A DNA stretch of 64,000 nucleotides. Source: Lachnospiraceae bacterium AC2031. Lineage in GTDB: Bacteria > Bacillota > Clostridia > Lachnospirales > Lachnospiraceae. Shown here piece after piece: positions 9,283 to 55,554 of this stretch. The notes below the pieces were generated by a model. The model did no database searches, was not told the DNA's origin, and saw only the letters and a program-made list of their open reading frames with translations. The stretch lies in contig JIAB01000001.1 of the NCBI GenBank assembly GCA_000687975.1, forward strand, positions 2,208,001-2,272,000, in the 5' to 3' direction. Numbering within the stretch: position 1 is the first letter of the stretch; each line of letters starts with the position of its first letter. The position numbers and the translations under genes were made by a program.

Positions 9283-9319
9283 AATGAGTCACTTTCCGTA
9301 AAAGGAAATGTGACTCATT
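9283..9319 (+). repeat. ATGAGTCA-type intergenic palindrome, copy 1
   Basis: AATGAGTCA (9283-9291) and TTTCC pair with GGAAA and TGACTCATT (ending 9319) around a 6-base loop. It fills the gap between glyA and ftsH. Similar ends recur at 40949, 49001, 54646 and 55518. It may act as a terminator or mRNA stabiliser, but no T-run follows on the + strand. Confidence 0.8.
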
Positions 9320-9330
9320 AGGATTTATAT

Positions 9331-11739
9331 ATGGAAGAAAACAATAACAATCAAAATAATAACAACGACAATCAGAAAAAACCGGGTGGCTTTAATGGAA
9401 TGATCGGAGCCATTGTGGTGGCAATAATCCTTTCCATAGTATTCATTATGGCTTTTAACAACTACAAAGCATCAGGGGAAAAAGAAATCTCCTATAACAA
9501 GTTCGTTGAGATGCTTGAGGCTGGAAATGTTAAAGATGTAGAAATCTATGAGAAGAAGATCAAGTTCACCCCGATCGGCGAAAATGTAAAGACTGAAAAT
9601 GTCACCTACTATGTTATTCGTACAGATGACTACAAGCTTATCGAAAGACTTGACAAAGCCGATGTTAAGTACACAGCGATCGATGAGGGTGGAAATGCTA
9701 TTCTCAGCCAGATTCTTTACTACGTAATACTTATCGCTGCTATGTATTTCATTACCATGCTGATCATGCGTCGTGTAGCAGGAAGCTCAGGCGGAATCAT
9801 GAACGTTGGTAAGTCTAATGCAAAGCTTTACGATATGACAAAGAATACAGGTGTAACATTTAGTGATGTTGCAGGTGAAGAGGAAGCGAAGGAGTCTCTT
9901 ACTGAGATGGTTGACTTCCTTAAGGAGCCAAAGAAGTATCTTGAGATTGGTGCCAGACTTCCAAAGGGTGCACTTCTTGTAGGTCCTCCAGGAACAGGTA
10001 AAACCCTCCTGGCCAAGGCCGTTGCAGGAGAGGCGGGAGTTCCATTTTTCTCGATGTCTGGTTCTGAGTTCGTAGAAATGTATGTTGGTGTCGGTGCGTC
10101 CCGTGTACGTGACCTTTTCAAGCAGGCAACTGCTAAGGCACCATGTATCATCTTCATCGACGAGATCGATGCTATCGGTCGAAGCCGTGATACCCGTCAT
10201 ATGGGCGGTGATTCAGAGCGTGAGCAGACACTTAACCAGTTGCTTTCTGAGATGGACGGTTTCGATTCTGAGAAGGGTATCATTATCCTTGCAGCTACTA
10301 ACAGACCTGAGGTTCTTGATAAGGCGTTACTTCGTCCAGGTCGTTTCGATAGACGAGTTATCGTTGAGAAACCTGACCTTAAGGGTCGAGAAGATATCCT
10401 GAAGGTTCATGCCAAGGATGTTAAGCTGGATGAGACAGTTGATCTTCATGAGATAGCTAACGTAACATCTGGATCAGTTGGTGCTGATCTTGAAAATATC
10501 ATCAACGAGGCTGCGCTTACTGCAGTTCGTAAGGGAAGACGTTTCGTTTGTCAGAATGATATCCTTGAGTCAATTGAGGTTGTCTTCGCAGGTAAAGAGA
10601 AGAAGAATAACATTTTATCCGCAGAAGAGAAGAGTGTAGTTGCCTTCCATGAGGCAGGACATGCGCTCCTATCAGTACTGCAGAAGAATACAATGCCAGT
10701 TCAGAAGATCACTATCGTTCCTCGTACAAAGGGTTCCCTGGGTTATGTATGGCAGGCGCCTGAGGAAGAGAAGAATCTTGAGACAAAGGCAGAGCTTGAG
10801 GCAGATATCGTAATCGCTGTTGGTGGACGTGCTGCAGAGGCACTTAAGTTCCCATCAGTTACAAACGGTGCGTCAAATGATATCGAACAGGCTACTCGTA
10901 TCGCAAGAACCATGGTTACCATGTACGGTATGTCGGAGCGTTTCGGTATGGTTCAGCTTGAGGGAATCACTGGTGAGTACCTTGATAGAAGAAGAGTTCT
11001 TGAGTGTTCAGATGAGACAGCAACTCTTGTTGATGAAGAAGTTAAGACAATCATCAATAATGCTTATGCTAGAGCATATAAGCTTCTTTCAGACAACATT
11101 GAAATCCTTGATGCAGTTGCTACATTCCTTATTGATCATGAGACCATCACAGGTAAGGAATTCATGGAGATCTACAACCAGATAACTGGTGGTGTTGCTC
11201 CGCAGATAGATAAGGCTGTATCACTTACTTCTGGAAGCGCTTCAAATGTTACTAGAGTTTCAAGTGCTACAAAGAAGTCAAAGGAAGCTCTTAAGGCTCT
11301 CGGTGCAGAATCAGTTACTAAAGCGGAAAAGGCTGGTCTTAAGGTTGGTGAGAAGCTGAAGGAGAAGCTAAAGAAGCAGAAGAAAAAGAAAGCTAAGGAA
11401 GATAAGGCTGCTGAAAAGGCTCAGCCTAAGGCAGCTAAGTCTAAGGACAAGGTTAAGGACAAATATAAAGTATATGTTAGTCCAGAGTTTGAGGCAAAGC
11501 GTAACGAACTTCTAAAGGATGAAGAATCCTATGATGTAGATGTGGATAATGTTACAGAACAGCTTACTGAGGATATGGCACCTAACACTGATACAGAGAC
11601 AGTTGAATCAGCAAAGGTTGAGGAAACAAATGTTGAAGTAGAAAGTGCAGATGAAGCGCCAGTAGAGACAGAAAGCACAGATGAGACACCTGAAGCTACA
11701 GAAGAAAAGCCTAAGATGCCTTGGGAAAGCGAAGAGTAA
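9331..11739 (+). CDS. ftsH: ATP-dependent zinc metalloprotease FtsH with long charged C-terminal tail
   Basis: Membrane-anchored AAA+ protease that extracts and degrades membrane and soluble proteins. Two N-terminal membrane helices (about residues 23-43 and 127-150) flank an extracytoplasmic segment. The AAA module has Walker A GPPGTGKT (218-225), Walker [10 protein letters not shown] and the second-region-of-homology GRFDRRV. The zinc site HEAGH is at 440-444. From about residue 640 the protein carries an extra 160-residue tail, first Lys/Ala rich ([15 protein letters not shown]), then acidic with [18 protein letters not shown] repeats; typical FtsH ends near residue 640-660. The tail ends in the motif PWESEE. 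A strong bidirectional hairpin follows at 11771. Confidence 0.97.
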
Positions 11740-11770
11740 TTCATTATCTATAGAATTAACGAGATAGTAA

Positions 11771-11810
11771 AAGCGACAAACGAGATATAATTCGTTTGTC
11801 GCTTCTTTTT
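11771..11810. terminator. Rho-independent terminator between convergent ftsH and 11816 gene
   Basis: AAGCGACAAACGA (11771-11783) pairs with TCGTTTGTCGCTT (11792-11804), followed by TTCTTTTT. The convergent arrangement suggests it serves both strands, though the T-run is best on +. Confidence 0.88.
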
Positions 11811-11815
11811 ATATG

Positions 11816-54637: not shown

Positions 54638-54645
54638 AACGAATC

Positions 54646-54738
54646 AATGAGTCAAAATGAGTCACCCCCACGTCGGACGTACAAGGTGACTCAAAAATGA
54701 GTCACTTGTTACGTCCGACGTGAATGTTGACTCATTTT
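54646..54738. repeat. ATGAGTCA-type intergenic palindrome, copy 4 (double, longest)
   Basis: The 93-base element contains ATGAGTCA at 54647, another ATGAGTCAC at 54658, GTGACTCA at 54685, ATGAGTCAC at 54697 and terminal TGACTCAT ending at 54735. Inside, CACGTCGGACGT (54669-54680) is complementary to ACGTCCGACGTG (54711-54722). It looks like two nested copies and fills the gap between two glycosyltransferase genes. Confidence 0.88.
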
Positions 54739-54755
54739 GTTAATGGTAAGTGATT

Positions 54756-55517
54756 ATGAAGATTACAGGTGGAGTAGTTACATATAACAACAAAAAAACT
54801 ATAGATCGATGCATCAGTTCGGTGTTGAAGATGAACATAGATAAAGACTATGATTTTCGTCTGTATGTGTATGATAATGGTTCGACTGATGGAACACCTG
54901 AGTTGATCGAGTCCAAGTACCCTGAGGTAAAGCTTATCAGGGATAATGCGAACAAGGGCTTCGGCGCAGGACATAACGCGATTATAAAGCGTGTAAAGAG
55001 CGACTACCATTTTGTTATTAATCCTGATATTTATCTGGATGAAAACACTGTGGAAGAACTGACAAAGGTGCTGGAGAAGGACGAGAGCATCGGACTTATC
55101 ACACCAAGGATCATGAACAATGACGGAACTGAACAGTTTCTGCCAAAGTACTGTCCGACAGTGAGATACGTTTTTGTAAGCAAGATTCCAGGATTCAAAT
55201 ATCTTCGCCGCCGCTATACTCGTCAGGAGGAGAACCTGAACGAGCCAACAGAGATAGAGTTCTGTACAGGTTGTTTTTTTGGAGCTAGAACATCTTATCT
55301 GAAGAGGCTGAAAGGTTTCAGCAACAGATACTTTATGTACTGCGAGGATTCGGATCTCTCCAGAAGAGTCAGGGCGCAGGGCAAGAAGATTATCTTCTAT
55401 CCGGATGTGACAGCTTATCACAACTGGCAGCGAGATAACACAGGAAACCTTCGTGGAATCTACCGATTCGTAAAATCGCTCCTAGTTTATTTCAAGAAAT
55501 GGGGCTTTCAATTCTAA
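54756..55517 (+). CDS. Glycosyltransferase family 2
   Basis: A 253-residue GT2 enzyme similar to rhamnosyltransferases (ITGGVVTYNNKKTIDRC, VYDNGSTDGTPELIE, FGAGHNAIIK, VINPDIYLDENT as the metal site, MYCEDSDLSRRVRAQGKKIIFYPDV at the C-terminus). I use ATG 54756; a GTG at 54750 with GGTAAG ahead is also possible. It follows the palindrome and is followed by another copy of it. It belongs with 53624 in the surface-polymer cluster. Confidence 0.87.
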   Translation: MKITGGVVTYNNKKTIDRCISSVLKMNIDKDYDFRLYVYDNGSTDGTPELIESKYPEVKLIRDNANKGFGAGHNAIIKRVKSDYHFVINPDIYLDENTVEELTKVLEKDESIGLITPRIMNNDGTEQFLPKYCPTVRYVFVSKIPGFKYLRRRYTRQEENLNEPTEIEFCTGCFFGARTSYLKRLKGFSNRYFMYCEDSDLSRRVRAQGKKIIFYPDVTAYHNWQRDNTGNLRGIYRFVKSLLVYFKKWGFQF

Positions 55518-55554
55518 AATGAGTCAATTCGGCTTTGAGCCACTTTGACTCATT
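55518..55554. repeat. ATGAGTCA-type intergenic palindrome, copy 5
   Basis: AATGAGTCA (55518-55526) pairs with TGACTCATT (55546-55554), with an inner GGCT/AGCC stem. It starts one base after the glycosyltransferase stop and ends 11 bases ahead of the next start. Confidence 0.85.

What the first reader, a model, noticed from the sequence alone, without database searches (positions are those of the whole stretch)
9283..55554. Five intergenic palindromes ending in ATGAGTCA / TGACTCAT: a possible undescribed REP-like family
Copies at 9283-9319, 40949-40968, 49001-49056, 54646-54738 and 55518-55554 share only their termini (AATGAGTCA and its complement) while the interiors differ. All lie directly between a stop and the next start, often touching the stop codon or ribosome-binding site. 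The 54646 copy looks like one element nested in another, and the 49001 copy carries a 15-bp internal duplication. This fits a mobile or amplifying palindrome family rather than chance hairpins. The element might control operon-internal mRNA stability.
Basis: partly seen in the sequence, partly recalled or inferred. Interest (0 to 1): 0.72.

Follow-up and report, generated by a model that had tools for sequence, protein, structure and literature searches.

The report
Mobile REP-like hairpins with their transposase
The repeated palindromes between genes in this gut-type bacterium are real, number about a hundred in its genome, and are most likely tiny mobile DNA hairpins spread by a REP-type transposase whose gene sits between copies of them: a new branch of a known kind of mobile DNA.

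Summary
All five palindromes are present. Genome-wide, ATGAGTCA..TGACTCAT occurs 38 times against 0 for the reversed control; a looser form 119 against 9. In 108 copies collected, interiors fall into core classes: A 51, A2 28, B 19, other 10. The build is a conserved outer stem, a mismatched middle and a class-specific inner stem. Many copies form doublets with a 4-nt AAAA/TTTT spacer (15 of 17 pairs); the 'nested' 54646 copy is such a doublet. Outside the window a REP-associated tyrosine transposase gene (RAYT1) lies between class-B doublets; its predicted fold is closest to a RAYT bound to a REP hairpin (4er8). A second RAYT has different flanking palindromes, also seen in the window. Orthologous junctions are empty in 43 of 44 cases. 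So this is a RAYT/REP-type family, probably of the subclass (2.1, 'TIRYT') for which a survey reported no REP-like sequences. That RAYT1 moves class B is well supported; that it moves the more numerous class A rests on shared ends and elimination. The sister species G006 has 88 strict copies but no RAYT was found there. The proposed mRNA-stability role was not tested.

The parts
9283..9319 (.). single palindrome, core TTTCCGTAAAAGGAAA (class 'other'), between the glyA-like and ftsH-like ORFs
   Evidence: RNA fold -19.7 kcal/mol, z -7.2
40948..40968 (.). truncated remnant of a class-A-like element (left end intact, right terminus lost); not among the 108 copies counted
   Evidence: fold -7.8 kcal/mol; 2 of 2 relatives resolved at this junction lack it
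49003..49054 (.). class-A element with a 15-bp tandem duplication, between QueD-like and QueE-like ORFs; supplies QueD's TGA stop at 49005-49007; too long for the 108-copy count
   Evidence: 16 of 16 relatives lack it
54647..54654 (.). lone ATGAGTCA half-end just before the doublet
54657..54694 (.). first class-B monomer (core ACGTCGGACGT) of an inverted doublet
   Evidence: a single class-B copy lies at the same junction in G006
54697..54735 (.). second class-B monomer (core ACGTCCGACGT); spacer AAAA between TGACTCA and TGAGTCA; doublet folds as one hairpin, -51.6 kcal/mol
55518..55554 (.). single class-A element directly after a TAA stop
   Evidence: 13 of 13 relatives lack it
50455..50504 (.). 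copy of the second RAYT's repeat family, between FolE-like and QueC-like ORFs (related system, not the family of the finding)
58537..58588 (.). copy of the second RAYT's repeat family (related system)

Best explanation
The palindromes are non-autonomous REP/REPIN-type mobile hairpins spread by a REP-associated tyrosine transposase, RAYT1, encoded at 1,993,610-1,994,410 of the same chromosome (the window starts at 2,208,001). Shown: a family of about 100 copies; one outer stem with constant A/T ends, a mismatched middle and a class-specific inner stem; doublets with a constant AAAA/TTTT spacer; RAYT1 lying between class-B doublets; a RAYT fold; copies present at junctions that are empty in relatives. 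Inferred: RAYT1 binds the folded single strand, cuts and rejoins it, and so spreads doublets and singles into gaps between genes. Class A has the outer stem and doublet spacing but another core, and is probably moved by the same enzyme through the outer stem. The position next to stop codons is mostly what selection would leave in short operon gaps. Hairpins in mRNA, and stop codons supplied by the element, I take as by-products.
For: Copy number against control. Core classes and architecture. A before the element in 74 of 74 singles, T after it in 72 of 74; 4-nt AAAA/TTTT spacer in 15 of 17 pairs, and in 10 of 10 pairs in a sampled 135.7 kb of G006. RAYT1 starts 8 nt after one class-B doublet and ends 13 nt before another. 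NHVH and YIIQNP motifs; Y1_Tnp 55.7 bits; closest solved fold 4er8, E 7.5e-7. The second RAYT likewise lies between its own repeats. RAYT flanks share a 12-mer in 31 of 50 loci against 256 of 2,450 mismatched pairs. Junctions empty in 43 of 44 relative-by-junction cases.
Against: G006 has 88 strict copies, mostly class B in what was listed, but no Y1_Tnp or RAYT1 match; a lost gene or an assembly gap is assumed. No RAYT between class-A copies was found, though class A is the larger class. The NCBIfam REP-transposase model scores 43.6 bits, below its cut-off of 80. Pfam reported no HTH domain. No GTAG or CGTC tag stands at the foot. Related loci are not independent. No movement was observed.
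Confidence: 0.78

Rival explanations
1. Two separate mobile families: RAYT1 moves class B only; class A is moved by another enzyme, lost or of another type, and the shared outer stem reflects descent or convergence.
For: Class A never flanks a RAYT in the loci seen. Class A is abundant in G000 and rare in G006, class B the reverse. No A+B doublet among 17 pairs. PMC6006769 (passages) says each RAYT has its own REP family.
Against: Identical ends, identical A/T flanks and identical 4-nt doublet spacing in A and B. G000 has only three Y1_Tnp genes; RAYT2 has other repeats and the IS200-type gene has no TGAGTC or GACTCA within 5 kb.
Confidence: 0.35
2. Selected RNA elements: hairpins kept between operon genes to stabilise or process mRNA or uncouple translation; spread is secondary.
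For: 91 of 108 copies lie between co-directional genes; 40 of 69 co-directional places touch the preceding stop; mild strand bias, 12 doublets AAAA and 3 TTTT on the coding strand (p 0.035), and 32 to 15 for single A/A2 copies (p 0.019).
Against: Orthologous operons in relatives do without them. The stop-codon excess falls to 40 against 32.3 when the ribosome-binding region is protected. The terminator scan of window 48,900-55,700 called none of the copies on the coding strand. The mismatched middle and doublets fit a DNA substrate.
Confidence: 0.12
3. Miniature elements (MITEs) of a DDE-type insertion sequence with these terminal repeats.
For: Inverted terminal repeats and constant A/T flanks could be a short target preference or duplication.
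Against: The protein gene found between such ends is a Y1 (HUH) transposase. DDE families were not searched for in the genome.
Confidence: 0.05
4. Chance or compositional palindromes.
For: In other genera the strict pattern often turns up in single places that look like chance.
Against: 0 reversed-control matches against 38 in the own genome; core classes and doublets recur.
Confidence: 0.01

Closest known systems
TIRtrons / TIRYT (Di Nocera et al. 2013, PMC3733652: parts 1-2 of 8 and passages read), equated with TnpA-REP subclass 2.1 in PMC6006769 (section 20 and passages read)
   Same: RAYT-like gene between inverted repeats that form a dispersed family, partly as dimers; long protein; RAYT2's repeats carry the GGGGWSAS motif.
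   Different: RAYT1's repeats lack GGGGWSAS and occur in about 100 copies of several core classes; the passages I read call TIR families moderately abundant, and PMC6006769 reports no REP-like sequences near subclass 2.1 genes.
REPINs (Bertels and Rainey 2011, PMC3116915, passages read)
   Same: Inverted REP doublets forming one long hairpin; a RAYT gene between copies.
   Different: No GTAG-type tag seen at the foot; spacer of 4 nt with back-to-back palindromes instead of a long spacer; most loci in G000 are singles (74 of 91).
E. coli REP / TnpA-REP (PMC8266576, passages read; structure 4er8)
   Same: Fold of the enzyme; hairpin with a conserved mismatch inside the stem; intergenic sites; three REP types served by one enzyme in E. 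coli.
   Different: Conserved GTAG foot in E. coli is absent here; 13% identity to 4er8.
CGTC-tagged REPs (PMC3733652)
   Same: Class-B core contains CGTC/GACG.
   Different: There CGTC is an unpaired tag at one end; here it is inside the inner stem, and class A lacks it.

Membership tests
REP / RAYT system in the broad sense | short palindromes, many copies, mostly extragenic | tested here: met
   38 strict / 119 loose copies; 5 of 108 inside ORF calls
REP / RAYT system in the broad sense | a Y1 (HUH) transposase gene flanked by copies of the repeat | tested here: met
   RAYT1 between class-B doublets; not shown for class A
REP / RAYT system in the broad sense | class 2 signature: HUH and Y---NP motifs, RAYT fold | tested here: met
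   NHVH, YIIQNP; 4er8 best fold match; but NF047646 43.6 bits, cut-off 80
REP / RAYT system in the broad sense | transposase binds and cleaves the folded single strand | not testable with these tools
   needs biochemistry
canonical GTAG REP | GTAG (or variant) tetranucleotide at the foot of the hairpin | tested here: not met
   the base before the 74 singles is A and the further flank is not conserved
CGTC REP | unpaired CGTC at one end | tested here: not met
   ends read AATGAGTC/GACTCATT
REPIN | two inverted REPs forming one hairpin as the dispersed unit | tested here: inconclusive
   17 doublets but 74 singles in G000; in the G006 sample 10 doublets and 10 singles, and 30 doublet-length places in listed rows
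TIRYT / subclass 2.1 | C-terminal HTH-like extension | tested here: inconclusive
   conserved tail GLSxRQIxRLTGIxRxxIxR and terminal helices; Pfam reported no HTH at E 0.01; no tree with published members
TIRYT / subclass 2.1 | GGGGWSAS in the flanking repeats (majority of described cases) | tested here: not met
   not in RAYT1 flanks; present in RAYT2 flanks
DDE-type MITE | parent insertion sequence with the same ends; target duplication | not tested
   DDE families not searched; relatives too diverged to read exact target sites

The most novel reading that the evidence does not exclude
One RAYT recognises its substrate mainly through the short outer stem with A/T ends and leaves the hairpin core free to vary. 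Different cores (A, A2, B, others) can then hitch-hike on one enzyme, and sister species amplify different cores: class A in this genome, class B in G006. REP families would then be modular, beyond the E. coli case of related REP types served by one enzyme, and RAYTs of the subclass reported without REP-like sequences would be active REP spreaders in Lachnospiraceae.
Probability: 0.4. Interest if true: 0.66.

Novelty: new variant of a known kind. Interest (0 to 1): 0.5.

Why it matters
It offers a REP/RAYT system with sharply bounded ends, several core classes and related genomes with filled and empty sites, in a bacterial family for which the papers I could search describe none. It makes testable which part of the hairpin such a RAYT reads and whether REP cores are interchangeable cargo. 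It also explains odd gene ends: in 13 of 69 examined operon-type places, and at QueD in the window, the stop codon lies inside the repeat.

Tried and rejected
Chance hairpins: rejected. Intrinsic terminators: the scan covered only window 48,900-55,700 and called none of the copies there on the coding strand; one call on the other strand overlaps the 54,657 copy. Rfam: in the window only a lysine riboswitch and a tRNA; nothing in L359, L360, L375, L376. Stop-codon targeting: the excess (40 of 69, uniform expectation 16.0) shrinks to 40 against 32.3, p about 0.001, when the ribosome-binding region is protected, so I do not claim it. PDB sequence search with RAYT1: best E 0.046; the fold search worked. 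A RAYT between class-A copies: none seen.

Limits: my own crude ORF caller; core classes by my regular expressions; the 108 copies come from stretches chosen because searches hit there (351,589 of 3,191,482 bases) and within 24-41 bp, so the window's 40949 and 49001 copies are not among them; listings were cut. The 6-8 strict matches in G042, G043, G047 were not seen as sequence. In one search, 3 of 53 loci with short flanks were dropped. In one search, G006 was dropped at the 40949 junction.

Literature: in an open-access library showed no paper on these elements; subscription papers are mostly not held. PMC2817692 and PMC3686654 were seen as listings only; Bertels et al. 2017 is not held and was seen only as a reference.

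Full report
Setting. The window is bases 2,208,001-2,272,000 of a single-contig chromosome of 3,191,482 bases, G000. So the organism is a Lachnospiraceae; Butyrivibrio or a neighbour is my guess, not tested.

The observation. All five stretches exist. ATGAGTCA occurs 13 times in the window against 4.2 expected; the paired form 4 times against 0.01. In the chromosome the strict palindrome occurs 38 times against 0 for the pattern read backwards, the looser TGAGTCN{7,36}GACTCA 119 times against 9.

Anatomy. 108 copies were collected from stretches around earlier hits (a targeted set, not a full census). Cores: A (GGCTTTGAGCC type) 51, A2 (GGCGAGAGAGCC type) 28, B (ACGTCCGACGT) 19, other 10. Positions 2-7 from the end pair in 50-51 of 51 A copies, 28 of 28 A2 copies and 18-19 of 19 B copies; the next four to five positions are mostly mismatched; in class A the four innermost positions pair again in 43-50 of 51. 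The base before the element is A in 74 of 74 singles and the base after it T in 72 of 74, so the element reads AATGAGTC..GACTCATT.

Doublets. Of 17 adjacent pairs, 15 have exactly AAAA or TTTT between TGACTCA and TGAGTCA; these are the same doublet read on opposite strands. In a sampled 135,699 bases of G006, 10 of 10 pairs have that spacer and 7 of 10 have the core order CCG then CGG, that is, inverted; there were also 10 singles. A 20-kb query with four class-B doublets hit at least 30 different doublet-length places of G006 in the listed rows. The copy at 54646 is such a doublet; it folds as one hairpin of -51.6 kcal/mol as RNA.

The transposase. Y1_Tnp has three matches in G000 and is found in 36 of 61 genus genomes. 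The gene at 1,993,610-1,994,410 (RAYT1) lies between class-B doublets at 1,993,523-1,993,601 and 1,994,424-1,994,502; a third doublet is at 1,992,923-1,993,001. The 266-aa protein has NHVH and YIIQNP, scores 55.7 bits with Y1_Tnp, and has NF047646 (REP-associated tyrosine transposase) as best NCBIfam match at 43.6 bits, under the cut-off of 80. Its tail resembles an HTH (conserved GLSxRQIxRLTGIxRxxIxR), but Pfam reported none. The model (mean pLDDT 86.6) is closest to 4er8, a RAYT bound to a REP hairpin (E 7.5e-7, 13% identity), ahead of the IS608 and ISDra2 transposases.

A second system as comparison. A second RAYT at 3,031,813-3,032,529 (45% identical) lies between copies of another repeat with GTGCA ends and GGGGACAGACC / GGTCCGTCCCC cores; copies lie in the window at 50,455-50,504 and 58,537-58,588. 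The third Y1 gene (2,167,791) has no TGAGTC or GACTCA in 5 kb. In 50 RAYT loci of family and genus (3 of 53 dropped for short flanks) the two flanks share a 12-mer in 31, against 256 of 2,450 mismatched pairs (related loci are not independent); 25 of the 31 shared words hold GGGAC or GTCCC. Locus L235 has ATGAGTCA ends around GGGGACTGTCCCC.

Gain and loss. The region is syntenic in the genus. At the QueD/QueE junction 16 of 16 relatives lack the element, at the 55,518 junction 13 of 13, at the 40,949 junction 2 of 2, and at the 54,646 junction 12 of 13, G006 holding one class-B copy. Class A at up to 3 mismatches is in 2 of 61 genus genomes (G000, and three places in G006) and in 1 of 397 sampled family genomes. 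The strict pattern matches in 12 of 61 genus genomes: G006 88, G000 38, G042 8, G047 8, G043 6, G028 4, G029 3 and five with 1. Against my reading: G006 has neither Y1_Tnp nor RAYT1 matches. Repeats outliving a lost RAYT have been described (PMC6006769, passages), but an assembly gap is as likely.

Gene context. With my crude ORF caller, of 108 copies 91 lie between co-directional genes, 6 convergent, 3 divergent, 5 inside ORF calls and 3 unplaced. With doublets merged, 40 of 69 co-directional places touch the preceding stop; in 13 the stop is the element's own TGA. A uniform model expects 16.0, one that protects the ribosome-binding region 32.3 (p about 0.001). A weak strand bias exists: AAAA on the coding strand in 12, TTTT in 3 and another spacer in 1 of 16 doublets.

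Mechanism. Shown: the family, its ends, doublets, a RAYT gene between class-B doublets, a RAYT fold, lineage-specific presence. Inferred: action on the folded single strand, as shown in vitro for E. coli, Stenotrophomonas and Marinomonas enzymes (PMC8266576, passages). For class A the link to RAYT1 rests on identical ends and spacing and on no other fitting Y1 gene in the chromosome. I put RAYT1 as mover of class B at about 0.8 and of class A at about 0.55. An mRNA role remains possible as a side effect.

Known kinds. PMC3733652 (parts 1-2 of 8 and passages) describes TIRtrons: RAYT-like genes between inverted repeats, often with GGGGWSAS, sometimes forming moderately abundant families and dimers. 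PMC6006769 (section 20 and passages) equates most of these with its subclass 2.1 and says no REP-like sequences were found beside such genes. RAYT1 fits that subclass by length and tail, but no tree was built. The ends carry neither a GTAG nor a CGTC tag, so these are not canonical tagged REPs. I file the family as a new variant of RAYT-linked REP/TIR repeats: in all that could be tested it works like a REPtron, without being a GTAG REP.

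Noticed in passing
window 50455-50504 and 58537-58588; G000:C1:3031813-3032529: A second RAYT with its own GTGCA/GGGGACAGACC repeat family, two copies of it in the window.
   Followed up: partly
L375 and L376 (G019, G021), QueD/QueE junction: Structured inserts of about 250-280 nt with several hairpins (such as AAGCTTGCTTAA) sit at the junction where G000 has its element.
   Followed up: no
L359 near 8276-8420 (G006) and window 38690-38744: Beside G006's class-B copy lies another palindromic stretch with GCGGAGCGAAGCG; a similar GGAGCGAAGCG hairpin follows the dapB-like ORF in the window.
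   Followed up: no
L235 (G176 RAYT locus); L035, L041, L069, L075 and others: ATGAGTCA..TGACTCAT ends around GGGGACTGTCCCC or GGGACGGTTC-like cores in other Lachnospiraceae and related MAGs, suggesting that these ends recur in RAYT-type repeats.
   Followed up: partly
L034, L037, L050, L092, L100, L103, L104, L111 (Amycolatopsis, Allokutzneria): Recurrent palindromes with the same ends but TTCAGG..CCTGAA or TTGGGGGAG cores in actinomycetes, perhaps another repeat family.
   Followed up: no
window 20587-21837 (-): ORF that looks like an IS605 OrfB/TnpB; no TnpA-like ORF noticed beside it in the ORF list.
   Followed up: no
window 22903-31251: A 2,782-aa secreted-looking repeat protein with cell-wall-binding-like repeats at its end.
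   Followed up: no
window 36700-36877: Lysine riboswitch upstream of the dapA-like ORF; ordinary.
   Followed up: no
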